Assembly (NCBI RefSeq): GCF_014699005.1
Contig: NZ_JACWZY010000002.1
Span: 248,001-312,000 of the forward strand
Length of the DNA: 64,000 bases
Reading direction: 5' to 3'
From: Spirosoma profusum
GTDB taxonomy: Bacteria > Bacteroidota > Bacteroidia > Cytophagales > Spirosomataceae
The translations under genes and the position numbers were made by a program. The notes beneath the pieces are model-generated. The model was not told the origin of the DNA. It did no database searches and saw only the letters and a program-made list of their open reading frames with translations. The first letter of the stretch is position 1; each line of letters begins with the position of its first letter. Shown here piece after piece: positions 25,429 through 47,047 of the stretch.

Positions 25429-25524
25429 TCTTGAGTTCTCAGAATTGAGGAGTATGGACTTCGTTCGCGAATCATCCAACTCCCTGACTGATAACTAAAA
25501 ACTGAAAACTGAAAACCATTAAGA

Positions 25525-26841: not shown

Positions 26842-26860
26842 TTTATAATCCGCTAGCACG

Positions 26861-27979: not shown

Positions 27980-28005
27980 TTTTAAACTTATAGAAACCAA
28001 ATACT

Positions 28006-29889: not shown

Positions 29890-30883
29890 TCGACAGGAAC
29901 GACGGTTCCAAAAGCTGGCATTTCTGACTATACTTACTGTTTATCTATTAATTCTTGCAGGGGGTATAGTCAGAAGTACGGGTTCTGGAATGGGGTGTCC
30001 TGACTGGCCTACATGTTTTGGTCGCTGGGTTCCACCAACCGAAATCTCACAATTACCAACGGACTATCGGGAGATTTACGGGTCAAAATTGAAAGGAGAA
30101 ATAGAGTTCAATGCCGTAAAAACCTGGATAGAATACGTTAACCGACTGTTAGGCGTTTTATCCGGTTTTTTCGTTTTTGGTACGTTGCTGGCATCCACTA
30201 CGTATCTCCGCAAAGATCGGACTGTATTTTGGGGCAGTTTCACCGCATTCGTCCTTATTGGCCTAAACGGCTGGCTCGGTTCAAAGGTAGTAGCTACTGA
30301 ACTGGCTCAATACATGATAACGCTACATATGTTATTAGCCATAGCAGTTGTATTCGCCCTAATTTTTGCATTAGTACGTTCAAGGGGCTCGCGTTTACAA
30401 TCGGGGATTGAAGTAGAAAAAACGGCGACGTTACGTTGGTTACTGGTTTTTATAATGGTGATAACTATTATCCAGATAGTCCTCGGTACGCAGGTACGTA
30501 GTACACTCGACGACGTAGTGAAACGGTTGGGTTACGAACAGCGGAATAACTGGATTGCCAATTTACAAGGAAGCTTTTACGTACACCGATCATTTTCGCT
30601 GATCATATTAGCTTTTCATGGAGTAGTTATTTATCAACTGCGGAAGCTACGTAACAGTGAATGGTTGACAGGGCTGGCTAATGGATTGATTGCAATTGTA
30701 GCTATTGAAATAGGTGTCGGTGTGATTATGGCTTATCTGGCAGTGCCTGCCATAACACAACCTATTCACTTATTATTGGCTATTTTATTGATAGGAGGGC
30801 AGTTTGCAGGTTGGTTGGTACTCAATCCAGCGCTCATTGTTCCAAGAACAACATCAACAAAATCTCGACTTGTCGAAATTTAG
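29864..30883 (+). CDS. ctaA: Heme A synthase (CtaA/COX15)
   Basis: CtaA oxidises heme O to heme A for the oxidase encoded upstream. The 339-residue protein has eight predicted membrane helices and the hallmark GGIVRSTGSGMGCPDWPTC (about 28-46) with its loop cysteine pair. Conserved heme-ligand histidines lie in ITLHMLL, VHRSFSLIIL and ITQPIHLLLA. It starts inside the end of coxA, which suggests coupled translation, and is one base short of touching ctaB. Confidence 0.93.
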   Translation: MTNSTSPINRQERRFQKLAFLTILTVYLLILAGGIVRSTGSGMGCPDWPTCFGRWVPPTEISQLPTDYREIYGSKLKGEIEFNAVKTWIEYVNRLLGVLSGFFVFGTLLASTTYLRKDRTVFWGSFTAFVLIGLNGWLGSKVVATELAQYMITLHMLLAIAVVFALIFALVRSRGSRLQSGIEVEKTATLRWLLVFIMVITIIQIVLGTQVRSTLDDVVKRLGYEQRNNWIANLQGSFYVHRSFSLIILAFHGVVIYQLRKLRNSEWLTGLANGLIAIVAIEIGVGVIMAYLAVPAITQPIHLLLAILLIGGQFAGWLVLNPALIVPRTTSTKSRLVEI

Positions 30884-30884
30884 T

Positions 30885-31763
30885 ATGGAAAAAGTAACTG
30901 CAATAGCTATTCGAGCCGAAAAAGCTAAAGCATATATTGAATTATTGAAACTGAAACTGACGCTGGCGGTTGTCTTTTCCGGCGTGTTCGGTTATTGCCT
31001 GGCGGTCGATCAAATCAGTTGGTGGAAAATAGCTGTACTTACAATTGCTTCAATTTTCATTACGGGTGCCGCCAACATTATCAACCAAATTATTGAAAAA
31101 GAGTCGGACAAAGTTATGAAACGTACTGCGGTACGTCCTTTACCAACTGGCCGCCTGAGCGTTCGGGAAGCAACCATTTTCGCTTTTCTCTTATTCAGTA
31201 TTGCCTGCTACCTCTACGTTCAATTTTTTAACATTCGGACGGCTGCGCTTGCGGTACTTTCCTTACTATTATACGGGTTTGTTTATACACCCTTAAAGCG
31301 TAAGGGGCAAATTGCTGTATTTGTTGGGGCATTGCCCGGAGCTTTTCCTCCAATGATTGGCTGGGTTGCGGCTACGAACCACTTTGGCTGGGCTCCAGGT
31401 ATTTTATTCGCTATTCAGTTTTTCTGGCAGTTTCCGCACTTTTGGGCAATAGGTTGGCTGGCATTTGATGAGTACAAAAAAGCGGGTATTCAGATGATGC
31501 CTGGAAATGGAAAGACAACTGAAACGGCCTTCCGTATCATGATTTATACGTTGTTTTTGATTCCCGTTGGTTGGCTACCTTACCTGTTGGGAATGACAGG
31601 TATTAATTCAGCCCTGGTAGCTATGATTGGGGGAATCTTGTTTCTGGCGCAAACGTTCCATTTGATGAGAACCTGCACAGACAAGGCGGCCCTGCAAATG
31701 ATGTTTGGATCATTGCTCTATTTACCAATTGTGCAGATCGTTTACCTGCTCGATAAAGTATAA
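30885..31763 (+). CDS. ctaB: Protoheme IX farnesyltransferase (heme O synthase)
   Basis: CtaB adds the farnesyl chain to protoheme to make heme O, the substrate of CtaA. This UbiA-family prenyltransferase has nine membrane segments and the two aspartate-type motifs: NQIIEKESDKVMKRT with RPLPTGR (about residues 67-88), and the second loop region around WLAFDEYKKAG. The longer frame open from a TTG at 30804 overlaps ctaA by 80 bases and is unlikely; ATG 30885 lies one base after the ctaA stop and gives the normal 292-residue length. Confidence 0.94.
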   Translation: MEKVTAIAIRAEKAKAYIELLKLKLTLAVVFSGVFGYCLAVDQISWWKIAVLTIASIFITGAANIINQIIEKESDKVMKRTAVRPLPTGRLSVREATIFAFLLFSIACYLYVQFFNIRTAALAVLSLLLYGFVYTPLKRKGQIAVFVGALPGAFPPMIGWVAATNHFGWAPGILFAIQFFWQFPHFWAIGWLAFDEYKKAGIQMMPGNGKTTETAFRIMIYTLFLIPVGWLPYLLGMTGINSALVAMIGGILFLAQTFHLMRTCTDKAALQMMFGSLLYLPIVQIVYLLDKV

Positions 31764-31772
31764 CAACAAAAC

Positions 31773-32363
31773 ATGAACGAATTAGTAAACAATATTTCAA
31801 TTGTAGAAGAGCCAGAGGAAACTCTCTCGATGAACCCCCGTAAATTCATTTTATGGTTATTCATTGTGAGTATTATTATGCTCTTTGCGGCAATGACCAG
31901 TGCCTATTTGGTACGTAGAGCCGAAGGTAACTGGCTGGAATATGACATTCCGACAATCTTTAGTTACAGCTCAGTTGTTCTGGTAATTAGTAGTGTGACT
32001 ATGCATTGGGCGTACCTGGCTGCAAAAAAAGACAATTTTGGCAGCCTGAAGATTGCGATAACTATTACTTTTGTACTCGGAGTCATCTTCCTGTATATGC
32101 AGTTTCAGGGCTGGGTCGATTTAGTCAATGAAAATGTGTTTTTCGTTGGCAATCCCGCCGGTTCGTTCATGTATATTTTTACAGGATTACACGGCTTCCA
32201 TTTGATTTCGGGATTAATCGTGCTGATAGTAGCGTTGATCGCAGCTTTCCGTTTAAAAATCCACGCAAAAAGCCTGAATCAGATAGAAATTGCCGCTACT
32301 TACTGGCATTTTTTAGACATTTTATGGTTGTATTTGTTTTTCTTTTTAGTCTATTTTCATTGA
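31773..32363 (+). CDS. Cytochrome c oxidase subunit III-like protein, first copy
   Basis: This 196-residue protein has five membrane helices and belongs to the heme-copper oxidase subunit III family. It shows the FTGLHGFHLISGLIVLI helix (about 133-150) and an ending ATYWHFLDILWLYLFFFLV that matches the subunit III C-terminal helix. It is shorter than the second copy that follows 15 bases later. Paired subunit III genes are common in Bacteroidota oxidase operons. Confidence 0.9.
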   Translation: MNELVNNISIVEEPEETLSMNPRKFILWLFIVSIIMLFAAMTSAYLVRRAEGNWLEYDIPTIFSYSSVVLVISSVTMHWAYLAAKKDNFGSLKIAITITFVLGVIFLYMQFQGWVDLVNENVFFVGNPAGSFMYIFTGLHGFHLISGLIVLIVALIAAFRLKIHAKSLNQIEIAATYWHFLDILWLYLFFFLVYFH

Positions 32364-32378
32364 TAATCTTTTAGACGC

Positions 32379-33176
32379 ATGGCGGCTAGTGTAACCCACG
32401 ATACCCTGACGACCGATTCAGACGCAGTTTTTGATAAAAAGATCTGGATGGGCGGTGTCGAACCCATGAAAGTGAGCTACGGCAAGCTGATGATGTGGTT
32501 CTTCCTGATTTCGGATACATTCACTTTCTCAGCGTTGCTGGTCACGTATGGCTTAATTCGCTATAGCTACCCAGCCTGGGACCCCGCTATTTATGGTGAA
32601 GTATTTAAGTTTTCGAACTTGTACTGGCCAACCCCCGAAATGGTGTATGCAGCGTTGCCATTTCTGCATGGCGTACATGCCCCACTGATTTTCGTGGGTA
32701 TCATGACCTTTATTCTGATTTTTAGTAGCGTCACCATGGTATTGGCCGTAGAAGCTGGACACCGGATGGATCAGGCAGATGTAGAAAAATATATGCTCTG
32801 GACAATTCTGGGCGGTTTTACCTTCCTGGGAAGCCAGGCTTGGGAGTGGAGCCACTTTATTCATGGTACAGAAACTGGTACTACGATCAGCGAAATTATA
32901 AATGGGCAAACGATCCAACGTACCATTTTTGGCGCTAATCTCGTCGAAAATCAGTACGGACCACCAGCTTTTGCCGACCTGTTTTTTTTCATCACGGGTT
33001 TCCACGGAACACACGTTTTTAGTGGCGTTGTTTTAAATATCCTGATTTTCTACAGAGCTGCCACCGGCCTGTACGCTCGTCGTGGGCATTACGAAATGGT
33101 TGAGAAAGTTGGTCTTTACTGGCACTTTGTTGATCTGGTTTGGGTATTCGTCTTTACGTTCTTCTATCTAGTTTAA
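32379..33176 (+). CDS. coxC: Cytochrome c oxidase subunit III, second copy
   Basis: This 265-residue subunit III has about six hydrophobic segments. It contains WFFLISDTFTFSALLVTYG (about 33-51), GSQAWEWSHFI with the conserved glutamate region, FFITGFHGTHVFSGVVLNI and the C-terminal VGLYWHFVDLVWVFVFTFFY. It has a longer soluble insert (TGTTISEIINGQTIQRTIFG) than copy one. Subunit III stabilises proton uptake and the assembled oxidase. Confidence 0.93.
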   Translation: MAASVTHDTLTTDSDAVFDKKIWMGGVEPMKVSYGKLMMWFFLISDTFTFSALLVTYGLIRYSYPAWDPAIYGEVFKFSNLYWPTPEMVYAALPFLHGVHAPLIFVGIMTFILIFSSVTMVLAVEAGHRMDQADVEKYMLWTILGGFTFLGSQAWEWSHFIHGTETGTTISEIINGQTIQRTIFGANLVENQYGPPAFADLFFFITGFHGTHVFSGVVLNILIFYRAATGLYARRGHYEMVEKVGLYWHFVDLVWVFVFTFFYLV

Positions 33177-33191
33177 TAACCGATTTTTACC

Positions 33192-33521
33192 ATGTCTGAT
33201 CACACACACGGTACACACGAAGTAGGTGAAATCCCACCTGCCAATACAGGTATTATTTGGCGGACCTTTTGGATACTATTAGGTATTACGATGATCGAAT
33301 TTACACTTGCTTATCTTATGAAAGCGGGTGGAATGCGGACTTCAATTTTCGTCATAATGACGTTAGTGAAAGCCTTCTATATTGTTGGCGAATTCATGCA
33401 CTTAAAACATGAAGTAAAAAGCCTAATCTGGGCAATTGTTATCCCAATTGTCTTTATTGTTTGGTTACTGGTTGCATTACTGGCCGAAGGTGGTTCAATT
33501 GGTACTTCGGTTTTTGGTTAA
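33192..33521 (+). CDS. Cytochrome c oxidase subunit IV-like protein
   Basis: A 109-residue protein with three membrane helices and a histidine-rich N-terminus (SDHTHGTHEVG). VKAFYIVGEFMHLKHEVK (about 57-74) is the signature of the bacterial COX4_pro/prokaryotic subunit IV family. It follows coxC by 15 bases. It is a small accessory subunit of the oxidase. Confidence 0.88.
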   Translation: MSDHTHGTHEVGEIPPANTGIIWRTFWILLGITMIEFTLAYLMKAGGMRTSIFVIMTLVKAFYIVGEFMHLKHEVKSLIWAIVIPIVFIVWLLVALLAEGGSIGTSVFG

Positions 33522-33524
33522 TAC

Positions 33525-34235
33525 ATGACGACATCTGGAAAGGCCGGGATTCTGCTCGCTACGTTGCTGATCCCGGCTTTACTGTATCTATTTCTTCGCT
33601 TTGGTACGCAAAATCACTACGTACTACCACGCTACTTGCCCAAAATTGACTCAGCCAAAGGTGAACCATTACTGGGTAAAGTTAAATTGGCCAACGGAAA
33701 CGTAGTAATAGATACAATTTATAACCGTATACCACCTTTTAGCCTTATTGATCAGGACGCTAAATCGGTCAATGAATCGATTGTAAAAGGGAAAATATAC
33801 GTAGCAGACTTCTTCTTCACTCGCTGCGGGACTATTTGCCCCCGTATGTCATCCCAACTGACACGCGTACAGGACATTTTTCGAAATAACCCTGATGTAA
33901 TTTTCCTATCGCATACCGTTGATCCTGAACACGACCGGCCTGAAAAGCTTAAAGCCTACGCGAGGAAATACGAAGCGATACCTGGTAAATGGTATTTTCT
34001 AACGGGTAGCAAAGACGCTATTTATGAACTTGCCATGCATGGATATTATTTACCAACTGTCGATGCGGGCGTGAAGGAAGGCAAACCCGACGAAACTTTT
34101 ATTCACAGTGAAAAGTTGGTTTTAGTAGATAAAGAAGGGATTGTCAGAGGGTTCTATGATGGGACTGACAAAGAAAATGTTGATCGTTTAGTACTTGAGA
34201 TTCGTGTCTTGCTAGATATTTACAAAAAAGAATAA
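33525..34235 (+). CDS. SCO1/SenC family copper chaperone
   Basis: SCO proteins deliver copper to the CuA site of subunit II or keep its cysteines reduced. This 236-residue membrane-anchored protein has one N-terminal helix and a thioredoxin-like domain with the copper-binding RCGTICPRM (CxxxC near residues 101-105) and the distal histidine in ETFIHSEKLVLVD (about 194). It lies three bases after the subunit IV-like gene. Confidence 0.93.
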   Translation: MTTSGKAGILLATLLIPALLYLFLRFGTQNHYVLPRYLPKIDSAKGEPLLGKVKLANGNVVIDTIYNRIPPFSLIDQDAKSVNESIVKGKIYVADFFFTRCGTICPRMSSQLTRVQDIFRNNPDVIFLSHTVDPEHDRPEKLKAYARKYEAIPGKWYFLTGSKDAIYELAMHGYYLPTVDAGVKEGKPDETFIHSEKLVLVDKEGIVRGFYDGTDKENVDRLVLEIRVLLDIYKKE

Positions 34236-34239
34236 GCAA

Positions 34240-34782
34240 ATGGACGTAGTAGAAGCCGCTCAGGAGCAGAAAGCGAATCGGGTCATTAATGGGCTGGCTT
34301 TAGCCATTCCGATTGCCGTAGCTGTGCTGCTGGGTATCCGTCGGAAGGTGGACTTGGGGGAATGGACAACGTACCTGCCGCACATAAACGGTGTGATTAA
34401 TTCAATTACCTCTATTTTGCTTCTATTAGGCTTTTACTTCATCAAACAAAAGAACGTAGTGGCCCATAAGCGAACAATGTTAGCCGCTTTTGCATTAGGT
34501 TCTGTTTTTTTAGTGTGTTACGTTCTTTACCATTTAACAAACGAATCGACTCCGTTTGGAGGAGAGGGCTGGATACGTCCGGTTTACTATTTCCTCCTGA
34601 TATCGCATATTGTGTTATCGGTCGTTGTGGTTTGGTTCGTGCTACGAGCCGTGTATTTTGCGTTGAGTGGACAAATTTTAAAACATAAACAGACCGTAAA
34701 ATACGCGTTTCCAATCTGGCTTTACGTTAGCATTACAGGCGTAATCGTGTACCTGATGATAAAACCGTATTATATTCATTAA
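34240..34782 (+). CDS. DUF420 membrane protein (CtaM/YozB-like)
   Basis: This 180-residue protein has about five hydrophobic helices and belongs to the DUF420 family, known from oxidase operons. In Firmicutes the relative CtaM is needed for heme-copper oxidase assembly, so an assembly role is likely here. Conserved histidines occur at LPHINGVINS, VAHKRTMLAAF and LLISHIVLS, and a C-terminal LKHKQTVKYAFPIWLYVSIT. Four bases separate it from the SCO gene. Confidence 0.88.
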   Translation: MDVVEAAQEQKANRVINGLALAIPIAVAVLLGIRRKVDLGEWTTYLPHINGVINSITSILLLLGFYFIKQKNVVAHKRTMLAAFALGSVFLVCYVLYHLTNESTPFGGEGWIRPVYYFLLISHIVLSVVVVWFVLRAVYFALSGQILKHKQTVKYAFPIWLYVSITGVIVYLMIKPYYIH

Positions 34783-34793
34783 CTTATAAGAAA

Positions 34794-35075
34794 ATGAAAC
34801 GTTGGCAAGTGTGGTTGATGATTGTTCTGTTGATGGCTGTTACGCCTGACGTAATGGCGCAGTGTGCCATGTGCCGGAGTACTGTCGAGAGTACGATAAG
34901 TAACGGACGTAGCGTTGTGGCGTCGGATTTAAATTTTGGTATTCTGTATCTGCTACTAATCCCTTATCTGATCGTTGCATCAATTGGCTATTTGTGGTAT
35001 CGTCATAGCAAACAAGAATATGGGCGACGTATCGAGATTGCAGGCCGCGTTAAACGGGCTATGTCCCAGGTGTAG
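34794..35075 (+). CDS. Small membrane protein with CAMCR motif, unknown function
   Basis: A 93-residue protein with a signal peptide ending DVMAQ, directly followed by CAMCRSTVE (two cysteines spaced CxxC near residue 24) and one membrane helix (ILYLLLIPYLIVASIGYLW, about 50-68). A periplasmic CxxC on a small anchored protein in an oxidase operon would suit redox or metal handling during oxidase assembly, but this is inference; no named family is recognised. Its end overlaps the next gene by 56 bases. Confidence 0.8.
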   Translation: MKRWQVWLMIVLLMAVTPDVMAQCAMCRSTVESTISNGRSVVASDLNFGILYLLLIPYLIVASIGYLWYRHSKQEYGRRIEIAGRVKRAMSQV

Positions 35076-35397
35076 GAAAGGGAAAATTTTTAAAAGGCCC
35101 TTTTACACACCCAAAGGATTCGACGAAATGTATGAACATTGTCCGCATTGCGGACTACGTTACGAAGTCGAACCCGGTTATTTTATTGGTGCCATGTATG
35201 TTAGCTATGCAATTTCTGGTGGCGTTGCTTTGGTAGTTGGTTTCCTGCTATTTTATTGGGCGGGCGATCCCGAAGGATGGGTTTATGCCGCTGTTGTTGC
35301 ACCACTCATGATCTTAATTGCCCCTGTTAACTTTCGAATTTCGCGCGTAATCTGGTTGCATTACGTAGCAGGTATTAAATATGTGAAAGGGCTGTAA
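35020..35397 (+). CDS. DUF983 family protein
   Basis: A 125-residue protein with an N-terminal zinc-ribbon-like pair (LCPRCRKGKIF and EHCPHCGLRYEVEPGYFIGA) followed by two membrane helices (about 62-80 and 86-103). This is the DUF983 family, often encoded near cytochrome oxidase genes. Its function is unknown. The start at 35020 (MGDVSRLQ) is chosen because an upstream alternative at 34975 is not an ATG and would deepen the overlap with the preceding gene. Confidence 0.85.
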   Translation: MGDVSRLQAALNGLCPRCRKGKIFKRPFYTPKGFDEMYEHCPHCGLRYEVEPGYFIGAMYVSYAISGGVALVVGFLLFYWAGDPEGWVYAAVVAPLMILIAPVNFRISRVIWLHYVAGIKYVKGL

Positions 35398-35411
35398 CAA
35401 GCCCTTTTTTA
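35388..35411 (+). terminator. Terminator of the respiratory operon
   Basis: AGGGCT (35388-35393) pairs with AGCCCT (35400-35405) over a 6-base loop, followed by T residues to 35411. The hairpin contains the stop codon of the DUF983 gene, marking the operon end. Confidence 0.8.
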
Positions 35412-35502
35412 TTGGGCAAGAAAATTGCCGGACAAAAAATTACACCAGATGCAACCTGCTACGTTCTAACTTGCATCTTAGTAGTGAACCTGAACGAAAT
35501 AA

Positions 35503-35581
35503 ATGAATAATGTAAAATGAATAATGATCAATGTTCTATGAGCAGGCAATTATTCATTAATCAGTATACATTACTCATTTA
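35503..35581. repeat. AT-rich inverted repeat before the sigma factor gene
   Basis: Several ATGAATAAT / ATTATTCAT words on the left are complementary to words on the right (for example TGAATAATG with CATTACTCA near 35571), so the region can fold into an imperfect hairpin. It lies just before the sigma factor start and may be a repeat or a regulatory structure. Confidence 0.35.
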
Positions 35582-35590
35582 AGTATACCT

Positions 35591-36196
35591 ATGCTCCGAC
35601 TTATACCGTTTTTTACAACCGAAGCGCAGTTGATTACTGCCTTGAAGCGTGGCGAAAGTCGCGCCCATAAGGTTGTTTATGAACGATTTGCGGGAAAAAT
35701 GCTGGCGGTATGTACGCGTTATTGCGCCAATCGTGCCGATGCCGAAGAAGTGATGCTGGATGGGTTCATGCGGGTGTTCGAAAAAATTGAGCAGTTTCGG
35801 GAGCAGGGGAGTTTTGAGGGCTGGATTCGCCGGATCATGGTAACAGAATCATTAATGTTTCTACGCCGGAATAGACAATGGCGTCAGGAAATTCCGATTG
35901 ATGAAACGACACCCGAACCCGATTATGAATGGGCCGATGCCGCACTAAATGAAAACGATTTGCTACGTATGGTGAATCAATTGCCCGACGGTTATCGTAC
36001 CATATTTAACCTATACGCTATTGAAGGATACGCCCATGCTGAGATTGCCGAAATGCTGGGTATTTCGGAAGGGACATCCAAATCGCAGTTAAGCCGGGCA
36101 CGGACACTGTTGCAGACGAACTTAAAGAAATTAGAACAGGAGCCGGAATACCGGTCTGACTACTATGAAAAAACATACCGAAAAACAGCCCATTGA
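35591..36196 (+). CDS. RNA polymerase sigma-70 factor, ECF subfamily
   Basis: This 201-residue ECF sigma factor has region 2 (YERFAGKMLAVCTRYCANRA through FEGWIRRIMV, about 30-88), which melts and reads the -10-type element, and region 4 (LPDGYRTIFNLYAIEGYAHA, then IAEMLGISEGTSKSQLSRAR, about 137-177), a helix-turn-helix. The next gene overlaps its end by 32 bases and has the layout of a membrane anti-sigma factor, so the pair probably forms a signalling switch. Confidence 0.93.
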   Translation: MLRLIPFFTTEAQLITALKRGESRAHKVVYERFAGKMLAVCTRYCANRADAEEVMLDGFMRVFEKIEQFREQGSFEGWIRRIMVTESLMFLRRNRQWRQEIPIDETTPEPDYEWADAALNENDLLRMVNQLPDGYRTIFNLYAIEGYAHAEIAEMLGISEGTSKSQLSRARTLLQTNLKKLEQEPEYRSDYYEKTYRKTAH

Positions 36197-37067
36197 CGAC
36201 TTGTTTGCCCGAAAACTGGGTGATATGTCGCTGAGACCTAGCGCTGATGGTTTCGAGCGTTTACAGGCGCGTATGGGCCAGCAGACGGCAGAAACCAGGC
36301 TTGTTTTCTGGAGAAATCCGGCAATGCAACGCTACGTATCGGCAGCCGCTTGTTTGGTACTGGTTTGTACTCTGGGCTGGCGTTACTGGCCAAATAGCGA
36401 TAAAGCAATTTCTGGCGGCCCCAACGTAGCAGTCAATAAATCGCAAACAACGCGTCCCAAAAATCCCGTAAATCCAGCGACCGAAGTTCTGACAAAGCAA
36501 TCGTCATCTGACGATGCTACGTCTGCCCAACCTGCTACGTTAGCCAATGAACAAACGCAGTTGGTAGCCAAAACGCCAAGTAAACGTAGCAAACTAACAA
36601 CGCAGCCTATACATGAACAGAAATCGGTGGGGGCTCCCGAACGTAGCGAACCTGTTTTAGCGAAGATAGAATCAACGCAGTCACATCCAACTATAGAAAA
36701 CGCACGTCCGAACGTAGCACAAATTGATCCGATGAATTCTGGTCAGATTGCGTCTCCTGAAAGAACTGTAAAACCAATAGCTGCTTCTGAGCGGGTTCTG
36801 GTTGTAACGATTGCTGAACCGGAAGCATTGGCCGCTGCCCGTCAGGATGTAAAAGAAGTCAACGCAGAAAAATCGATAGCCGACACGGATCAGAATCCAG
36901 AGAAATCAGCGAAAACGGGTGGTTTATGGAATCAGGTAAAACGCTTCAAAGAGGGCGAAATATTTGCCCGACGTGATAACCAGCCTAGTGAAGACCGAGG
37001 TTTGTTAAGTCGGGCTTATACGGGCCTGAAACATAGTTTAGAGAAAGATAAATCCACCAAACAATGA
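36165..37067 (+). CDS. Putative membrane-bound anti-sigma factor
   Basis: A 300-residue protein with a short cytoplasmic N-terminus (about 1-48; PIDDLFARKLGDMSLRPS), one membrane helix (YVSAAACLVLVCTLGW, about 49-66) and a long low-complexity Ser/Thr/Lys/Glu-rich periplasmic part. Sequence alone does not show a zinc anti-sigma motif; the role is inferred from topology and from its 32-base overlap with the sigma factor gene. The gene is unusually rich in GCTACGT/ACGTAGC words (seven between 36331 and 36718). Confidence 0.65.
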   Translation: MKKHTEKQPIDDLFARKLGDMSLRPSADGFERLQARMGQQTAETRLVFWRNPAMQRYVSAAACLVLVCTLGWRYWPNSDKAISGGPNVAVNKSQTTRPKNPVNPATEVLTKQSSSDDATSAQPATLANEQTQLVAKTPSKRSKLTTQPIHEQKSVGAPERSEPVLAKIESTQSHPTIENARPNVAQIDPMNSGQIASPERTVKPIAASERVLVVTIAEPEALAAARQDVKEVNAEKSIADTDQNPEKSAKTGGLWNQVKRFKEGEIFARRDNQPSEDRGLLSRAYTGLKHSLEKDKSTKQ

Positions 37068-38080
37068 ATACGTTACTGCGTGTGGTAATTGCCACACTTA
37101 TCAGTACTGCGACATGGAACGCTCACGCGAAATCACTGGGACCTACTGATTCATTAGTGATTCGATTTGCCAATCGGACGAGACTGGTTATTTATGCGCC
37201 CGACAAAGCTGGTATTCAGGCGCTATCGAACTACGATCTCAACAAGATTGTGCGCGAAATGGGCATGAAACTGGATTCAGTTCCGGGTGGACAGACAGCT
37301 ATTTCGCAGGGAGGAGACCGATTTTTGAAAGATACGGTGCTGGTCGTTAAAACCGATAATAACACTACCACAGTCACAACTGAAAAAGTTACAGTCGAAC
37401 GTAGTGAATCCGATAAGCAGCGAGATCGTGACAGGGAGGAAGAAGAACGTAGAAGGCGCAGGCGGCACGAAAACCGAGGGCCTGATATAGGCGGTAGCTT
37501 TGGTCTTAATAGTTTCATTCAGCAGAGCCCAACTCCAGCTTTCCCCGAAACGGACTATGATTTATTGCCCTTGGGATCTCGGTACGTTGCACTATCAATA
37601 GGGGCTACACCTACACTCATTCCAGGTCGTTATGCTGCGTTGAAACTGTATTATGGTGTTGAGGTAGCCTGGAATAATTTCATGTTCGATGGAAACAATA
37701 TGGTTGTAAAAGGTAATACAACCGTCGAATTTCCAGATGCGGGCCGTGAATTACAGAAAAGCAAACTGACAGTCTGCACAATTGGTCTTCCAGTGGTGCC
37801 ACGGCTAACATTTTACAATAGCAGTGGTCGCAAGGTTGGTCATTTTGGGGTAGGAGGTTACATTAATTATAGGCTTGATAGCTATCGGAAAATAAAAGAA
37901 GCAGATGGCAGCACTGACCGGCGTCACTTCGATTTTTACCTCAACAATTATCGTTATGGGGTAATGGCTCAAGTGGGTATTCGAAGCTTCGACTTTTTTG
38001 TGAAGTATGATATTAGTCCGCTTTTCCAACCTGGAAAAGGGCCGGACGTTCGGGCGCTCAGCTTCGGCATTGGCCTGTAA
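37064..38080 (+). CDS. Predicted outer-membrane beta-barrel protein
   Basis: This 338-residue protein has a signal peptide (LLRVVIATLISTATWNAHA), a mixed-charge central stretch with many Arg/Glu residues (about 120-145, DKQRDRDREEEERRRRRRHE) and a C-terminal half of alternating hydrophobic strands ending in a glycine-rich SFGIGL. This suits a small outer-membrane barrel. It overlaps the anti-sigma-like gene by 4 bases (ATGA), so sigma factor, regulator and barrel are one transcription unit; the barrel could be a target or a sensor input. No specific family recognised. Confidence 0.7.
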   Translation: MNTLLRVVIATLISTATWNAHAKSLGPTDSLVIRFANRTRLVIYAPDKAGIQALSNYDLNKIVREMGMKLDSVPGGQTAISQGGDRFLKDTVLVVKTDNNTTTVTTEKVTVERSESDKQRDRDREEEERRRRRRHENRGPDIGGSFGLNSFIQQSPTPAFPETDYDLLPLGSRYVALSIGATPTLIPGRYAALKLYYGVEVAWNNFMFDGNNMVVKGNTTVEFPDAGRELQKSKLTVCTIGLPVVPRLTFYNSSGRKVGHFGVGGYINYRLDSYRKIKEADGSTDRRHFDFYLNNYRYGVMAQVGIRSFDFFVKYDISPLFQPGKGPDVRALSFGIGL

Positions 38081-38082
38081 TT

Positions 38083-38922
38083 ATGCCTAATCAAACCATT
38101 TCGATTATTGGCCTGGGCTGGATTGGTTTGCCACTCGCCGAAAATTTAGTAGCCGAAGAATTTCGTGTAAAAGGCAGCGTTACGTCCGCTGAAAAAAAGG
38201 CAACGTTACGTGAAAAAGGTATTGATACATATCAGCTTCAATTAAATCCTGAGCCAATTGGCGATCTGGACACGCTACTTCAAACCGATACGTTGGTCAT
38301 TAACGTACCTCCAAAAGCCGGAAAGTTCGGTGATACGTATCATCCGCAGCAAATTCAGTTTTTGACTGATGCCATACAAAATTCGCCTGTCAGGAACGTT
38401 CTCTACGTTAGTTCAACGTCCGTCTATCCTGACATAAGCGCCGACGTAGCGAACCACGTAGTGCGCGAAACTGACGTAACATTACTTGATCACTCAGCAG
38501 CCCCTGCCTTGTTTCAGGCGGAAGATTTGATACGTGGCCTTTCGCCAGATCGGTTGGTGACCATTGTCCGTTGCGCTGGGTTAATGGGTTACGACCGCAT
38601 TCCCGGTAAATACGTAGCAGGACGTAGCGTAGACAGTGGCAGGCTGCCCGTTAATTACCTGCACCAGGACGATGCTGTTGGTATTTTAACAGCCCTGATT
38701 CAACAGCCCATTTCTGGCACGTTCAACGCCGTCGCTCCAGAACATCCTGCCCGTGAAGCCATCTATCGGAAAAGCTGCGCGCAATTTGGCTACGGATTAC
38801 CCACCTTCGTTGAACCTAAGGGATTGTTACCTTATAAAATCGTGTCAGGCCAAAAACTTGACGAAGCCACTCGCTACATCTTTAAATATTCGGATCCTTT
38901 GCAATTTTTCTACAAGCGATAG
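38083..38922 (+). CDS. NAD(P)-binding SDR/epimerase-like protein (YeeZ-like)
   Basis: This 279-residue protein starts with a Rossmann nucleotide-binding motif (IIGLGWIGLPLAENL, residues 8-22) and has an extended SDR layout with NVLYVSSTSVYPD (about 105-117). It resembles YeeZ-type NAD-dependent epimerase/dehydratases, whose substrate is unknown. The usual YxxxK catalytic pair is not evident at the expected place. It follows the barrel gene by 2 bases. Confidence 0.82.
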   Translation: MPNQTISIIGLGWIGLPLAENLVAEEFRVKGSVTSAEKKATLREKGIDTYQLQLNPEPIGDLDTLLQTDTLVINVPPKAGKFGDTYHPQQIQFLTDAIQNSPVRNVLYVSSTSVYPDISADVANHVVRETDVTLLDHSAAPALFQAEDLIRGLSPDRLVTIVRCAGLMGYDRIPGKYVAGRSVDSGRLPVNYLHQDDAVGILTALIQQPISGTFNAVAPEHPAREAIYRKSCAQFGYGLPTFVEPKGLLPYKIVSGQKLDEATRYIFKYSDPLQFFYKR

Positions 38923-38975
38923 GTGTTACAATAGATAATCACGTTCTCATAACGTAGCTAATACGTATCAACTTA

Positions 38976-39608
38976 ATGAAAAATCCAGTGCTTATTTTCG
39001 GAGCAGGTAGCCTTGGCGTAACGGCTCTGGACCTGTTTCAACGTAATAACGTAGTAGTTTATGGTCTGCTCGACGATACTAAAGAACTGCATGGAAAGGA
39101 ATTCGGCGACGTATCAGTTTTGGGCGATACCGACGATGATGGCTTTCTAAAATTAATCGGTCATAAATGTGAAGCGTTTGTGGCTATCGGCGATGCGCGG
39201 GTCCGTAAACGGCTTGTGAAGATGCTGAACGAACGACGCAAAGTGCAGCCCGTCAACGCCATCCATGATACATCCATCGTTTCGACTTTGGCCAGTATAG
39301 GCCACGGAAATTTAATTGCAGCCAGAGCGGTCGTTAATCCATATGCTGAAATCGGGCATCACTGCATCATCCAGTCGGGAGTTGTTATCGAAAGTCAGGC
39401 CAAACTAGGTGATTACGTTCAAATTGGAACGGGTAGCCTGGTTAGCAGTGGAGCTGTGATAGAAGAAGGAGTGTTTGTTGGGGCAGGAGCTGTTATTGTC
39501 GCGGGAATTACGATTGGTAAAAATGCCCGCGTTGGTGCAGGTTCGGTCGTGATTGAGAACGTAGCAGCAGGCGCAACAGTCTTCGGGAATCCAGCGAAAG
39601 GGGTTTAG
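38976..39608 (+). CDS. NeuD/PglD-family sugar O- or N-acyltransferase
   Basis: This 210-residue protein has an N-terminal PglD-type Rossmann-like domain (LIFGAGSLGVTALDLF, about 4-19) and a left-handed beta-helix made of hexapeptide repeats (ARAVVNPYAEIGHHCIIQSG onward, about 113-205) ending NPAKGV. Family members transfer acetyl groups to sialic acids or to amino sugars for glycan synthesis. fcl, another nucleotide-sugar gene, lies nearby. Confidence 0.88.
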   Translation: MKNPVLIFGAGSLGVTALDLFQRNNVVVYGLLDDTKELHGKEFGDVSVLGDTDDDGFLKLIGHKCEAFVAIGDARVRKRLVKMLNERRKVQPVNAIHDTSIVSTLASIGHGNLIAARAVVNPYAEIGHHCIIQSGVVIESQAKLGDYVQIGTGSLVSSGAVIEEGVFVGAGAVIVAGITIGKNARVGAGSVVIENVAAGATVFGNPAKGV

Positions 39609-39613
39609 GTAAG

Positions 39614-39658
39614 CGTAGCGCGGACGGTCTGCCATTGCAGTGGACCGTCTGCGCTACG
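39614..39658. terminator. 16-bp inverted repeat between convergent genes
   Basis: CGTAGCGCGGACGGTC (39614-39629) pairs with 39643-39658 over 16 bp with one G-T type mismatch and a 13-base loop. It lies exactly between two converging genes. There is no T-run, so it may be a factor-assisted or REP-type element. Its stem tips are CGTAGC/GCTACG, part of the word enriched across the window. Confidence 0.55.
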
Positions 39659-39662
39659 ACAC

Positions 39663-40667
39663 CTAATTATTCGTTTCGTCGTCCTCTACGACTTTCTCTT
39701 TGGCGCGTTCGAACGTTACTTTTCCTTTTTCATCCCATTCCGTAAGAACGAACGATTCGAACTCGCTGTCCCAACGATCTGCCGCGTGCTGTATGAGTTT
39801 TCGGCGCATCCGTCGGCCACTTGGATTGATAGGATAATATTCAGTCCAGCGACCAATTTTAACGCCATTGTCGTATTTGCCTTCTTCGGCCAGCAACCCA
39901 TTTTCGTGGAAGGCCATATAGCTTCCTTTCACCTTGCCATATTCGACCGGAATAATTTCTTTGATTTTATGATGCGATGAATCATAGAACACCAACCTTG
40001 ATTCGGCCGGAACACCCCGAAGCCAGCGCATTTTGTCGGTAAGCATGAAATGGGTATCGTATTTTTCCCAGCGACCATCTTTCATACCCGCATAGTAAAA
40101 ACCTTCTTCAACGAGGTCACCGTTCTGATACCGTTTGTAAGGGCCATGCAACAATAAACCATTGCCTTCGTCGCGGACAATTGAACTCGTTACGCGTCCT
40201 GATTTCTGGTAATACCGATAAATTTCGCGAACGTAAGGAAGGGGCTTAGCTGCGTCATTATCGCGCAAAATATGAAATTCTTCCACAATGGTCCGGTCGC
40301 CACTACCCAGTTTGGTATAGGCTTTCACCATCGACAAGCCTTCATACTCGCTTTTTGACTGCTTATTTTTGGCTTTTTTGTCAGCTTTTAACTTTTTAAG
40401 CTGTTTCACTTTCAGCCCCAAATCTTTAACCTCAGCCAAATACGAATCTTTTTGCTCTTTCAGCGAAGACATACTCGGCAGACCAAGCGTGGTTAACGAT
40501 GAAGGCACTGATGAGAACGGAGAAGCTGGTGCGCCGGACGATTCTAATACTGGTTTCGACGCCGTAGTCAACGACGACGGGGCCGTTGGTGGCTGGGCAT
40601 GAGCAAGTGTCAACGATCCGTTGAATAACAAAAGAAGAATTGGGAGTTTTAAATCAGAAGCAAACAT
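39663..40667 (-). CDS. Exported protein with MORN/YwqK-like repeats
   Basis: A 334-residue protein with a signal peptide ending LTLAHAQ, a Ser/Pro-rich linker, a Lys-rich coiled segment (about 75-110) and repeats of the MORN/YwqK type: LHGPYKRYQNGDLVEEGFYY (about 173-192), MKDGRWEKYD, AFHENGLLAEEGKYDNGVKI and GRWTEYYP. Such repeats are common in secreted Bacteroidota proteins and are sometimes labelled YwqK-family antitoxins, but no toxin is adjacent. Function unknown. Confidence 0.75.
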   Translation of the reverse strand: MFASDLKLPILLLLFNGSLTLAHAQPPTAPSSLTTASKPVLESSGAPASPFSSVPSSLTTLGLPSMSSLKEQKDSYLAEVKDLGLKVKQLKKLKADKKAKNKQSKSEYEGLSMVKAYTKLGSGDRTIVEEFHILRDNDAAKPLPYVREIYRYYQKSGRVTSSIVRDEGNGLLLHGPYKRYQNGDLVEEGFYYAGMKDGRWEKYDTHFMLTDKMRWLRGVPAESRLVFYDSSHHKIKEIIPVEYGKVKGSYMAFHENGLLAEEGKYDNGVKIGRWTEYYPINPSGRRMRRKLIQHAADRWDSEFESFVLTEWDEKGKVTFERAKEKVVEDDETNN

Positions 40668-40700
40668 GGCGTCTGGAAACGGTTGTGGCCTTAAGTTTGT

Positions 40701-40708
40701 TACTTTTG
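40701..40708 (+). promoter_or_regulatory. Candidate -7 box of the fcl promoter
   Basis: TACTTTTG matches TAnnTTTG and lies 73 bases before the fcl start. A TTG at 40683-40685 is only 15 bases upstream, shorter than usual. Confidence 0.5.
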
Positions 40709-40780
40709 CAACGTTAAAGAAAGCTTTATTATTTTATCATTCAACCGTCTGCTTGTCTGCGGTTTGTTTCTTAGTCATCT

Positions 40781-41722
40781 GTGGAAAAACAGGCTCGTAT
40801 TTATATTGCCGGACATCGTGGTATGGTGGGTTCGGCCATTACTCGTAAACTTCAATCGGAAGGTTATACTAACCTGATCACCCGTACTTCATCCGAACTG
40901 GATTTACGCAACCAGGCTGCTGTCGCCGATTTTTTCGCGGAGGAGCAACCTGAATATGTATTTCTGGCGGCCGCTAAAGTTGGCGGTATCATGGCCAACA
41001 ACACCTATCGTGCCGAATTTCTGTATGATAACCTCATGATTGAATCAAATATCATTCATCAGGCTTATGTAACAGGCGTTAAGAAATTGTTGTTCCTGGG
41101 TTCGTCGTGTATTTATCCGAAACTGGCTCCGCAGCCCCTAAAGGAAGAATATTTGCTGAGCGGTTTTCTGGAAGCAACAAACGAGCCATACGCTATTGCT
41201 AAAATCACGGGTATAAAACTTTGTGAGTCATACCGGAGTCAGTACGGTTGTAATTTCATTTCGGCCATGCCAACCAATCTGTATGGGCCAAATGATAACT
41301 ACGATTTGCAGGGTTCGCATGTATTACCAGCACTGATTCGTAAGTTTCACGAAGCGAAAATCAACGACCAACCCTCTGTTGAAGTTTGGGGAACCGGGTC
41401 GCCACGGCGTGAGTTTCTCCATGCCGATGATTTGGCCGATGCCTGTTTCTATCTGATGCAGCACTACAGCGATGAGTCATTTGTGAACATCGGTACTGGT
41501 GAGGACGTAACGATACGAGAACTGGCCGAATTGGTGAAAGAAACAATTGGATTTGAGGGCGAACTACGCTGGAACACTGAAAAGCCGGATGGTACGCCCC
41601 GCAAATTGATGGACGTATCACGCTTGCATTCGATGGGCTGGAAGCATACAACCGAGCTTAAAGAAGGTATCGAACAAACGTATCAGGATTTTCTGGCGAA
41701 CGAGGTATTGTACGTCGAATAG
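40781..41722 (+). CDS. fcl: GDP-L-fucose synthase
   Basis: This enzyme converts GDP-4-keto-6-deoxymannose to GDP-L-fucose by epimerisation and NADPH reduction. The 313-residue SDR protein has the nucleotide-binding [10 protein letters not shown] (about 9-18), the catalytic [11 protein letters not shown] serine region (about 105-115) and the YAIAK pair (about 136-140). The start is GTG at 40781, needed to include the nucleotide-binding strand. Its partner gmd is not in the window. A bidirectional terminator follows. Confidence 0.95.
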
Positions 41723-41740
41723 CCAACATATTCGCTCATA

Positions 41741-41772
41741 AAAAAGCCATCGTATTCACCGATGGCCTTTTT
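41741..41772. terminator. Bidirectional terminator after fcl
   Basis: GCCATCG (41746-41752) pairs with CGATGGC (41760-41766) over a 7-base loop, with A residues before and T residues after, so it serves both fcl and the converging TPR gene. Confidence 0.88.
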
Positions 41773-41809
41773 ATTGGATTATATCCGACGACTTAAGACT
41801 GACGACTAT

Positions 41810-42601
41810 TTACTTAAATACTCCTTTGGGGTCAGGTTGTTTAGCCAATAATTCATTAAGGTATGTTAAATCGAGTGACGACAGATCGATGCTACGTGCC
41901 TGGTGAAAATATTCCCAGGCTTTGGGATAGTCGGCTTTCAGAAATTGAACGACGGACAGCTTCTGAAAGGATAACGCGTTCGGGTTTAACGTAACGGCAC
42001 GATGTAAATGCGCTTCTGCTTCTGCCAGCATATCGGCATCGGGTTTATCCTGGTAACATTTAATTTCGACCGTTGCCAAATCAGTTAATAAAACGGTGTT
42101 ACTGTCGGCTATTGCTGTTCCTTTTCTCAGTATCTTGATGGCGTCTGTCAGGTGGTTTTTCTGGTAACAAATTACGCCTAGCCCCCAGTACGCATCGACA
42201 TTGTCGTGGTTGAGCAACCAGGATAAATTAAAGCGATGGGCTGCCGTATCAAGTTGTCCTTTATCGACATAATCCCAACCACGGGCGGCAAAAAAATCGC
42301 TGGCATCTGAGCGGCTGGCGAAATTACGATCACAATCGTTCAGAAAACGGATTTCCTGGTCAATCTGATCGCTCGTTTTCGCGCTCTCATTCAGCAAAGG
42401 CAAAGTATTGACTTCGCCCCCGCTTGTTTCAATTGAGGTAGACTCTGTAGATTGATTTGACTCCTGATGGGTGGTTGGCGTTTGAACAGCCGTACCCGAA
42501 CGCGCTGATATAATAAGCTGCTTAGGCTGGGCTACCGACAAAATTGGCAAGCCAACGAAAGAATACACTATCAGTTTTATCCAAGTACGCATAGGGGGCA
42601 C
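41810..42601 (-). CDS. Exported tetratricopeptide-repeat protein
   Basis: A 263-residue protein with a signal peptide (LIVYSFVGLPILSVAQ), a low-complexity Thr/Ser/Glu linker and several TPR-type helices, for example AAHRFNLSWLLNHDNVDAYW, GLGVICYQKNHLTDAIKIL and KAWEYFHQARSIDLSSLDLT. TPRs mediate protein contacts; the partner is unknown. Confidence 0.78.
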   Translation of the reverse strand: MPPMRTWIKLIVYSFVGLPILSVAQPKQLIISARSGTAVQTPTTHQESNQSTESTSIETSGGEVNTLPLLNESAKTSDQIDQEIRFLNDCDRNFASRSDASDFFAARGWDYVDKGQLDTAAHRFNLSWLLNHDNVDAYWGLGVICYQKNHLTDAIKILRKGTAIADSNTVLLTDLATVEIKCYQDKPDADMLAEAEAHLHRAVTLNPNALSFQKLSVVQFLKADYPKAWEYFHQARSIDLSSLDLTYLNELLAKQPDPKGVFK

Positions 42602-42664
42602 TAAACCACAGGTTTGGTTTCGATAAAACGAAAAAGGAACCGAAGTTAGTACATTCTCAGTGAA

Positions 42665-44065
42665 TTACCGACGTCCGCGCCGTAAACTTGTACGCTTTGC
42701 TGGCCCCGATTTAGGTGCTGTATTTACACCCGGTCGCCGACTGACCAAACCAGACTTTGCTGGCTGATTACCAGCCGATTTCGATTTAGGCTTTTTTGAC
42801 CCTTTGGGTAGGTTTTTTGCCTTTTTTTCGTGGAAAGCTCCCTTAAAATCAGGGTCTTCTTTTCTACGTTGCAGGTCAATTTCACGTAGCATATCCTGCT
42901 GCTCATCGAACGGCGTTTCGACAACTTCTACTTGGGGAGGTAATGGTTGCCGGGGAATAGTCATTCTGATGATTTTCTCAATTTTCTGTACGTGATATTC
43001 TTCGGCCATTGTCAGGAACGTAATGGCTTCACCCGTATGTTTAGCGCGCCCAGTTCGACCAATCCGGTGTACGTAATCTTCGTAAATCAGCGGCAAATCG
43101 AAATTGATAACGTGACTCACTTCCGCTACGTCGATACCACGGGCTGCTACGTCGGTAGCTACCAGAACCTGAAGAGTCCCGTCTTTAAAAGCCTCCATAG
43201 CGTTGATACGTGTATTTTGGCCTTTGTTGGCATGGATTACCCGAATTTTATCAGATTCAACCACTTTGCGGGCCAGAAACTTATAAATATTTTCGGCCGT
43301 GGTCTTCGTCCGTGCAAAAATAATGACGCGCTGGAATTGGTCTTTGCTGATCAGGTAATCAAGAAAATTGATTTTGGTGCGAAAATTTGGCACTTCATAC
43401 AAAACTTGATTAACCATTTCGGCCGTCGATGCCTGTGGAGAGACTTCCACTTTAATAGGAGCTTCCAGAAATTCACCCGAAAGCCGTTCAACTCGCCCGC
43501 CAAACGTAGCAGAGAAAAGCAGATTCTGCCGTTTGGTGGGAATAACCTCTAAAATCGACCGAATCTGGGGCATAAAACCCATGTCCATCATTTTATCGGC
43601 TTCATCCAGCACCATCGTGCGGATTTCTTTCGTCACAATTTCGCCCATCCGATACAGGTCCATGAAGCGGCCGGGAGTTGCCACCAGTAAATCGACGCCT
43701 TTACGTAACGTTTCAATTTGTGTTTTTGGACCAAGTCCGCCGTAAAGTGCTACGTGCCGCAGATCGGTGTACTTGCCTATTTGCCCAACGGCTTCGTTGA
43801 TTTGGAGAACCAGCTCGCGGGTGGGAGCCAGAATCAATGCACGAGGGTTCATGCCCTGCGCGTATTTTATTTTCATCAGCAGCGGAAGCAGATAGGCCGC
43901 TGTTTTGCCAGTACCGGTCTGTGCGATGCCCAGTACGTCATGATTACCCAGACTCAGCGGAATGGTTTTCTGCTGTATTGGGGTAGGTTCGGTATACCCC
44001 AGATCGGCTACAGCATTCAGCAACTGCCGGTTCAACTCAAATTGTTCGAAAGAAGTAAAATCCAT
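42665..44065 (-). CDS. DEAD-box ATP-dependent RNA helicase (RhlE-like)
   Basis: This 466-residue helicase shows all core motifs in order: Q-motif GYTEPTPIQQKTIP (about 19-32), Walker A AQTGTGKT (about 48-55), PTRELVLQI, DEADKMMDMGF (about 155), SATF, VIIFARTKTTAENI, ATDVAARGIDVAEV and HRIGRTGR. A basic Lys/Arg-rich tail (about 400-466) adds RNA affinity, as in RhlE relatives that unwind structured RNA in ribosome assembly or decay. It is transcribed from its own start next to the kinase gene. Confidence 0.95.
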   Translation of the reverse strand: MDFTSFEQFELNRQLLNAVADLGYTEPTPIQQKTIPLSLGNHDVLGIAQTGTGKTAAYLLPLLMKIKYAQGMNPRALILAPTRELVLQINEAVGQIGKYTDLRHVALYGGLGPKTQIETLRKGVDLLVATPGRFMDLYRMGEIVTKEIRTMVLDEADKMMDMGFMPQIRSILEVIPTKRQNLLFSATFGGRVERLSGEFLEAPIKVEVSPQASTAEMVNQVLYEVPNFRTKINFLDYLISKDQFQRVIIFARTKTTAENIYKFLARKVVESDKIRVIHANKGQNTRINAMEAFKDGTLQVLVATDVAARGIDVAEVSHVINFDLPLIYEDYVHRIGRTGRAKHTGEAITFLTMAEEYHVQKIEKIIRMTIPRQPLPPQVEVVETPFDEQQDMLREIDLQRRKEDPDFKGAFHEKKAKNLPKGSKKPKSKSAGNQPAKSGLVSRRPGVNTAPKSGPAKRTSLRRGRR

Positions 44066-44128
44066 AGGTGTTAGTCAACAGTCGATAGTCAACGGTCTTT
44101 TAAAACTACCGCCTATTAACTACCAACT

Positions 44129-45028: not shown

Positions 45029-45128
45029 TCGTTTCGTAGTATATAGTGGACAGGTTTAGGTAGATTAACAGCCAAATTCATCGAATTTAGCCTGCAAAGT
45101 ACTTATAAACAGGGATAATTAACTGAAA

Positions 45129-46325: not shown

Positions 46326-46338
46326 ACTTGTCATTTTT

Positions 46339-46418: not shown

Positions 46419-46428
46419 GAAGCCAACT

Positions 46429-46953: not shown

Positions 46954-46962
46954 TGGATGTAG

Positions 46963-47044: not shown

Positions 47045-47047
47045 AGA

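What the first reader, a model, noticed from the sequence alone, without database searches (positions are those of the whole stretch)
36331..36718. GCTACGT/ACGTAGC is heavily over-represented and sits in terminator stems: a possible DNA-uptake-like word
In 388 bp of the anti-sigma-like gene the word occurs seven times (GCTACGT at 36331, 36516, 36534; ACGTAGC at 36424, 36584, 36641, 36712). The copies fall in all three reading frames and both orientations, so neither codon choice nor a protein repeat explains them. Random expectation for 388 bp is about 0.05. The word recurs through the right half of the window (for example 38450, 38628, 39558, 43503, 45217, 50210, 59420, 59452, 62544) and in terminator stems (61233-61290; partly 39614-39658). 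In Neisseria and Pasteurellaceae, uptake sequences behave this way: dispersed, orientation-balanced and paired in terminators. Alternatives are a methylation target or a chromosome-organisation motif. I counted only the listed positions by eye.
Basis: partly seen in the sequence, partly recalled or inferred. Interest (0 to 1): 0.75.

Follow-up and report, generated by a model that had tools for sequence, protein, structure and literature searches.

The report
Genome-wide favoured word in Spirosoma
A short DNA word fills this soil bacterium's genome about ten times more often than it should, even steering codon choice, in a few scattered species of one genus, and what drives it is unknown.

Summary
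GCTACGT occurs 75 times in the window (6.2 expected) and 10,552 times in the 8.73-Mb genome, against 1,191 for the reversed word. The unit is a non-palindromic 8-mer, ACGTANYR: 39,401 copies (4.5 per kb) against 3,143 for the control, strand-balanced and mostly inside genes. One-mismatch cores sit at 0.91 of a codon-shuffle null, the exact word at 6.1. Of the sites where the protein allows the word, 47% carry it, against 6% in 18 low relatives; genes that look recently acquired have almost none. It is strong in five Spirosoma genomes and weaker in a second genus; the nearest relatives of two carriers lack it. Codon usage, Chi-like polarity and a terminator role are not supported. No type IV pilus ATPase was found, nor, in five Pfam families, a methyltransferase shared by all five carriers. 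Best reading: an unidentified, patchily distributed DNA recogniser biases fixation site by site, akin to the HIP words of cyanobacteria. Uptake-driven spread is a close rival.

The parts
36330..36337 (-). ACGTANYR copy (ACGTAGCG on - strand)
36334..36341 (+). ACGTANYR copy ACGTATCG, sharing the ACGT core with the previous one (palindromic double)
36424..36431 (+). ACGTANYR copy ACGTAGCA
36515..36522 (-). ACGTANYR copy ACGTAGCA
36533..36540 (-). ACGTANYR copy ACGTAGCA
36584..36591 (+). ACGTANYR copy ACGTAGCA
36641..36648 (+). ACGTANYR copy ACGTAGCG
36712..36719 (+). ACGTANYR copy ACGTAGCA
36165..37067 (+). Host gene of the cluster (300 aa, no Pfam match, downstream of an ECF sigma factor); 8 of its 10 codon-permitted sites carry the motif
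35591..36196 (+). ECF sigma factor gene upstream of the host gene (context only)
   Evidence: Pfam Sigma70_r2/r4
61232..61291 (.). Hairpin, about 27 paired bases, with an ACGTANYR copy on each arm
1..64000 (.). Whole window: 252 ACGTANYR copies (123 +, 129 -) as part of 39,401 in the genome

Best explanation
ACGTANYR is the recognition word of a sequence-specific DNA-acting system that is resident in some Spirosoma species and absent or lost in close relatives. Shown: the word is enriched about tenfold on both strands; core mismatches are not favoured; neighbouring copies do not repel each other; about half of all codon-permitted sites in G000 are filled; and genes that look freshly imported lack it. 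Inferred: point mutations that create the word are preferentially kept and those that destroy it preferentially removed, a fixation bias of about ln(14) = 2.6 by the odds ratio of occupancy. Most likely this happens inside the cell, through processing or repair of individual sites by an enzyme-like recogniser, as postulated for the HIP words of cyanobacteria. The protein is not identified.
For: Genome-wide count and reversed control. Codon-shuffle null 1924 observed against 314 expected in G000, 283 against 284 in 18 low relatives; sense 947, antisense 977. Core mismatches near baseline. Occupancy 1914/4046 against 282/4729, with 10.1 against 7.6 permitted sites per kb, so amino acids have shifted too. 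No repulsion between neighbouring copies. A second, overlapping motif on the same core is only weakly favoured (45% against 16-32%), as expected if the duplex is one site. In 18 of 261 genes with 6 or more permitted sites occupancy is under 5%, apart from the main hump; several of the empty genes look mobile by eye, and restriction genes are often nearly empty. Aligned low relatives show single mismatches at every specified position, fewest at 7 and 8. Patchy tree distribution.
Against: No DNA methyltransferase common to the five strong carriers was found, and many of those examined are recent arrivals by motif content. The repair model published for HIP predicts saturation near one site per kb (PMC4390886 section 3.4, part 1); here the density is 4.5 per kb. 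Two core neighbours are mildly depleted in G000 (ACATANYR 0.61, ATGTANYR 0.68), which I cannot explain. I have no mutation data, and an uptake drive or ordinary selection would give several of the same patterns.
Confidence: 0.36

Rival explanations
1. DNA-uptake word: a competence system without a recognisable type IV pilus ATPase prefers DNA carrying ACGTANYR, and recombination of that DNA spreads the word (molecular drive), as in Neisseriaceae and Pasteurellaceae.
For: Dispersed, orientation-balanced, missing from genes that look mobile, patchy between species. ComEC in 214 of 222 family genomes, 34 of 36 Spirosoma. A Bacteroidota species, Riemerella columbina, prefers its own DNA in competition assays; that paper lists only A/T-rich frequent words (PMC7965970 sections 14 and 16 read). 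Very dense uptake words exist: nearly six thousand kingDUS in 2.4 Mb; and a DUS also has a near all-or-none CTG core with graded flanks (PMC3630211 passages).
Against: No pilus ATPase found. One-mismatch cores not elevated, whereas they are for known uptake words (PMC1939737 passages). No diminishing return between copies tens of bases apart.
Confidence: 0.3
2. Ordinary weak selection for binding sites of an abundant nucleoid or defence protein; each copy adds a little and the total number matters.
For: No repulsion and no polarity in G000. The YR step at positions 7-8 is accepted in all four forms, which suggests readout of a flexible step (inference).
Against: Needs about 39,000 sites each under scaled selection near 2.6. 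Related species with the same gene neighbourhood do without it. No candidate protein.
Confidence: 0.2
3. Methyltransferase-coupled mismatch repair in the strict published sense: an orphan DNA methyltransferase for ACGTANYR marks the word and repair preserves it.
For: The HIP paper states that all cyanobacterial genomes with highly over-represented words have at least one putative methyltransferase able to act on them, though six lack the CGATCG enzyme or carry it mutated (PMC4390886 passages). The IUPAC-like specificity with N, Y and R resembles such enzymes.
Against: PF01555 absent from G000 and G031; PF00145 absent from G003, G008, G029, G031; PF02086 absent from G000, G008, G031. Among the fetched carrier proteins close relatives are shared by two carriers only: G000-G031 HsdM 56%, G003-G008 PF01555 enzyme 72%, G008-G031 type IIG 67-80% over two pieces; the rest lie at 21-34% apart from one 41% match over 133 residues. 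Not all hits were fetched, and the g33 carriers were not searched for these families.
Confidence: 0.1
4. Compositional artefact (codon usage, dinucleotide bias, or repeats).
For: Codon usage itself carries some of the word.
Against: Three null models fail: dinucleotide shuffle, second-order Markov, codon shuffle. Low relatives of similar G+C give 283 against 284. Antisense equals sense.
Confidence: 0.01

Closest known systems
HIP1 and alternate HIP words of cyanobacteria (GCGATCGC, GGCGCC, rCCGGy, GCsGC)
   Same: Species-variable, hyper-abundant short words through the whole genome, present or absent between related genomes; degenerate forms exist; similar abundance. HIP1 is 300-2700 per Mb in most cyanobacteria (PMC4390886 Table 2); the commonest single 8-mer here, ACGTAGCA, is about 700 per Mb (324 in 464 kb).
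   Different: ACGTANYR is not palindromic, is degenerate (all forms together about 4,500 per Mb), occurs in Bacteroidota, and no cognate methyltransferase was found.
DNA uptake sequences (Neisseriaceae DUS, Pasteurellaceae USS)
   Same: Non-palindromic, orientation-balanced, dispersed in both strands, strict core with graded flanks; hints of dialects between species (top flanks GCA and GCG in G000; GTG first or second in G008, G029, G031, small samples).
   Different: No pilus ATPase found, no elevated one-mismatch forms, shorter degenerate word, only a mild hairpin excess.
Chi and other polar chromosome motifs (KOPS, AIMS; properties recalled)
   Same: Non-palindromic octamer with a strict core and a tolerated N.
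   Different: No bias to either strand by local GC skew in G000 (913 against 877); far denser and more enriched (recalled comparison).

Membership tests
DNA uptake sequence (DUS/USS) | Dispersed, orientation-balanced over-represented word | tested here: met
   19,710 forward and 19,691 reverse
DNA uptake sequence (DUS/USS) | Type IV pilus / competence pseudopilus machinery | tested here: not met
   PF00437 in 36 Spirosoma: best 26.6 bits; 3 genomes pass the cut-off (G034, G000, G031), each over 119 or fewer of 370 positions; 14 of 14 controls ring, 13 over the cut-off. The top three and one more G000 hit are TrwC relaxases; the 21 other, weaker rows were not examined, and 40 candidates at most were scored per genome (40 of 44 in G000)
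DNA uptake sequence (DUS/USS) | One-mismatch forms also over-represented | tested here: not met
   2783 observed against 3064 expected for 15 one-off cores in G000; flank one-offs about 1.5; published contrast in PMC1939737 passages
DNA uptake sequence (DUS/USS) | Inner-membrane DNA channel ComEC | tested here: met
   Present in G000 and 34 of 36 Spirosoma; also in low-motif species, so not discriminating
DNA uptake sequence (DUS/USS) | Uptake or transformation depends on the word | not testable with these tools
   Needs a transformation assay
HIP word of cyanobacteria | Hyper-abundant word, sporadic among related genomes | tested here: met
HIP word of cyanobacteria | Palindromic | tested here: not met
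   Core ACGTA with 3' NYR; 252 of 2153 instances have the opposite-strand partner
HIP word of cyanobacteria | Cognate DNA methyltransferase in the same genomes | tested here: inconclusive
   No member shared by all five strong carriers among the fetched hits of PF01555, PF00145, PF02086, PF02384, PF07669; other families, unfetched hits and specificity swaps not excluded
Chi / replication-polar motif | Strand bias with replication | tested here: not met
   Block counts chi2 30.2 on 21 blocks; skew-oriented fraction 0.510 in G000, 0.522 in G003, 0.488 in G008, 0.547 in G029, 0.431 in G031, none significant; G173 alone 0.609, p = 0.02 on 128 copies

The most novel reading that the evidence does not exclude
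A previously unknown kind of genome-wide word system: a patchily inherited recogniser, neither a known uptake pilus nor a shared methyltransferase, that rewrites the host chromosome one site at a time until about half of all codon-permitted positions, and some amino acids, conform to ACGTANYR. Its copy number would then act as a clock of how long each gene has lived in the genome.
Probability: 0.35. Interest if true: 0.92.

Novelty: new variant of a known kind. Interest (0 to 1): 0.8.

Why it matters
Few hyper-abundant genomic words are understood; uptake sequences in two families and HIP words in cyanobacteria are the ones I recall. This one is in Bacteroidota, where own-DNA preference has been reported without a convincing word (PMC7965970). 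It shifts codon and amino-acid choice and is present in some species and absent from their nearest sampled relatives. That makes gene-content association and simple genetic tests possible. It may also give a direct marker of recently imported genes.

Tried and rejected
Codon usage or protein repeats: rejected by the codon-shuffle null and antisense equality. Vsr-like single-base repair bias: not supported, because single mismatches in aligned relatives affect every specified position and the most depleted neighbours are still at 0.61-0.68. The Vsr seen beside the G000 m5C methyltransferase sits with an MvaI-like nuclease in an island nearly free of the motif (0.07 per kb). Terminator function: only a mild hairpin excess. 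Chi/KOPS polarity: not supported. A second enriched word in the same genomes: masking ACGTANYR left only milder words and the dispersed repeats. Decay of an ancestral word in intermediate genomes: one-off forms as a group not elevated (1.02-1.05). Shared positions between carriers (16 of 28 G031 sites are also in G000): partly convergence on permitted sites, but G000 is filled at 16 of 21 permitted sites where G031 has the word and 21 of 61 where it lacks it, so shared ancestry or site effects remain possible.

Paper searches for the word itself (0 papers), Spirosoma with motif terms, Spirosoma/methyltransferase/methylated motif, Bacteroidetes octanucleotides, Bacteroidetes and uptake sequence and Spirosoma competence: no listed title pointed to this word. 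Of the papers listed there I opened only PMC7965970; subscription papers are not held.

Selections and rows dropped: the genome search lists only the first places, so counts come from the per-genome columns. The 18 'low' genomes were picked, out of the 25 that it then placed under twofold. Of the other seven, six tested singly gave 0.78-1.36 of their shuffle null; G011 had too little sequence. G011, G021 and G033 were not in the tree. G033's high whole-genome count (6,389) was not seen in the 15 kb fetched (0 of 45 permitted sites in its 8-kb stretch; 0 per kb in L238).

On re-check I fetched unexamined methyltransferase and PF00437 hits and re-read DUS passages. Since a DUS also has a near all-or-none core, I lowered the leading mechanism from 0.38 to 0.36 and raised uptake from 0.27 to 0.30.

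Full report
What was checked. GCTACGT is found at all seven stated places and 75 times in the window against 6.2 expected from 100 dinucleotide shuffles. In the whole genome, G000 (8,731,341 bases, 81 contigs, window on contig 22), it occurs 5253 + 5299 times; the same word read backwards occurs 579 + 612 times. The genus is Spirosoma: contigs of G028 and G030, same genus as G000, have the same lengths as the named records of S. luteum and S. oryzae (520,592 and 392,925 bases).

The real word. In 464 kb of G000 the strongest 5- to 9-mers contain ACGTA or overlap it. Compared with 18 low-motif relatives (706 kb), ACGTAGCA is 27-fold and ACGTAGCG 25-fold enriched; position 6 is any base (G strongest), position 7 C > T, position 8 A or G. 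So the unit is ACGTANYR, with weak upstream preferences (less C at -1, more C at -2). Genome-wide it occurs 19,710 + 19,691 times against 1549 + 1594 reversed, about 4.5 per kb. After masking it, no other comparable word remains.

Strict core. Against a codon-shuffle null, the exact word in G000 genes is 1923 observed to 317 expected, while the 15 one-mismatch cores together are 2783 to 3064 (0.91; single values 0.61 to 1.24); flank mismatches are about 1.5. Low relatives give 0.97 for the word and 1.00 for the one-offs.

Not codon usage. Shuffling synonymous codons within genes predicts 314 copies; 1924 are seen, sense 947 and antisense 977; the low relatives give 283 against 284. Density is 4.82 per kb in genes and 3.21 outside. 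Of sites where the protein sequence permits the word, 1914 of 4046 carry it in G000 and 282 of 4729 in the 18 low relatives. Other genomes: G008 321 of 1006, G029 267 of 813, G031 178 of 618, G003 271 of 1332, G173 150 of 770, G174 57 of 478, G007 89 of 767. Permitted sites themselves are more frequent in G000 (10.1 against 7.6 per kb), so proteins have shifted as well.

Spacing and history. Occupancy does not fall near other copies: 0.50-0.59 with the nearest copy under 120 bp, 0.34 at 250-500 bp, in genes with leave-one-out occupancy of 0.25 or more. The positive association probably reflects differences in gene age or constraint that this filter leaves. No strand bias by local GC skew in G000 (913 to 877), G003, G008, G029 or G031; G173 is the exception, 78 to 50, p = 0.02. 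Blocks show no clear excess orientation (chi2 30.2 on 21 blocks). In 20 blocks of G000, 22 genes with 5 or more permitted sites have none filled; several look like relaxase, integrase or transposase by eye from their first residues, others do not. Restriction genes of the carriers are often nearly empty. Occupancy thus behaves like a residence clock (inference).

Distribution. Of 222 family genomes searched, strong enrichment over the reversed control is seen in G000 (12.5-fold), G029 (8.7), G008 (7.8), G031 (5.9), G003 (5.8), and in both members of genus g33 (4.7, 4.8). It is weaker in G033 (3.7), G007 (3.2), G002 and G014 (2.8), and a few others near 2 (G016, G030, G234, G236). Among the sampled Cytophagales outside the family none exceeds about 1.6. 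The reversed word is a rough control: some genera fall below 1. A named 20-kb stretch of Fibrisoma montanum also carries the word (28 against 9.6 in genes); that g33 is Fibrisoma is a guess. In a tree of 19 syntenic proteins (5384 columns, 33 Spirosoma) the carriers are scattered. G000 groups with G004, G020 and G027 (all 1.2-fold; support 93), G029 with G017 (1.0-fold; support 100), G008 with G031 (both carriers; support 48), and G003 branches alone; several inner branches have support of 46-64.

Looking for the driver. Five methyltransferase families were searched in 36 Spirosoma genomes. PF01555 is missing from G000 and G031, PF00145 from G003, G008, G029 and G031, PF02086 from G000, G008 and G031. 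PF02384 and PF07669 are common. Among the carriers' fetched members, close relatives are shared by two carriers at most: G000-G031 HsdM 56%, G003-G008 PF01555 enzyme 72%, G008-G031 type IIG 67-80% in two pieces; the rest compare at 21-34% apart from one 41% match over 133 residues. Of 19 carrier restriction-type genes tested, many have few filled sites; clear exceptions are the G000 HsdM (10 of 18) and a G029 type IIG enzyme (20 of 42). PF00437, the pilus ATPase family, gave only weak partial matches (best 26.6 bits; three genomes, G000 and G031 among them, just over the cut-off). The four examined, including the top three, are TrwC relaxases. ComEC is nearly universal. So neither a shared methyltransferase nor a pilus was found.

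Mechanism. Because core mismatches are not favoured, neighbours are near baseline, and copies do not repel, the data fit a fixation bias near equilibrium imposed by a strict recogniser. In published uptake words one-mismatch forms are over-represented (PMC1939737, passages). A DUS, however, also has a near all-or-none CTG core with graded flanks (PMC3630211, passages), so strictness alone does not exclude uptake. The HIP words of cyanobacteria are the nearest phenomenon (PMC4390886; abstract, passages, section 2.2 and the first part of 3.4 read). They are palindromic, mostly come with methyltransferases, and the model there predicts saturation at about one per kb. I therefore commit, with modest confidence, to an unidentified intracellular recogniser, and keep uptake drive and ordinary selection as rivals.

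Limits. Only 464 kb of G000 (plus restriction loci) and about 4-160 kb of each relative were read base by base; whole-genome statements rest on pattern counts. Genes were called by a simple open-reading-frame rule (100 codons or more). Genomes are one per species, so gains and losses could not be polarised. The g33 carriers were not searched for methyltransferases or pilus genes.

Noticed in passing
Spirosoma loci of 36 genomes (2.18 Mb); window 9667 is one of the few exceptions: GMGGCG (GCGGCG and GAGGCG) is almost absent: 9 and 8 copies against 1131 and 597 expected (second-order Markov), while one-base neighbours run from 0.55 to 1.67. Zero also in single stretches of Fibrisoma, Larkinella and g33, but not in Dyadobacter or Rufibacter. 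In G000 four of five exceptions lie in L019 and L026, the blocks poorest in ACGTANYR. Possibly more striking than the finding itself.
   Followed up: partly
G314, G327, G350 (three of the five g77 genomes sampled, order Cytophagales): ACGTANYR is nearly absent there (for example 19 copies against 1280 reversed in G314), the opposite of Spirosoma.
   Followed up: no
L221 (G000:C22:456000-470000): m5C methyltransferase, Vsr and MvaI/BcnI-like nuclease together in an island with almost no ACGTANYR, hence probably recently acquired.
   Followed up: partly
L009 and other G000 loci: REP-like dispersed repeats around TCAGCATGACAAA (34 copies in 464 kb) and GAAGCATCTTAA (26); some of the copies shown are paired in inverted orientation.
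   Followed up: no
window 4238-12661, - strand: Giant 2807-aa internally repeated reading frame with low motif occupancy (12 of 120), suggesting recent expansion.
   Followed up: no
Spirosoma loci: CAGGAAG and TCAGGA-type words are mildly over-represented (about twofold or more) in many Spirosoma genomes sampled, high and low alike; a candidate for a Chi-like or other conserved word.
   Followed up: no
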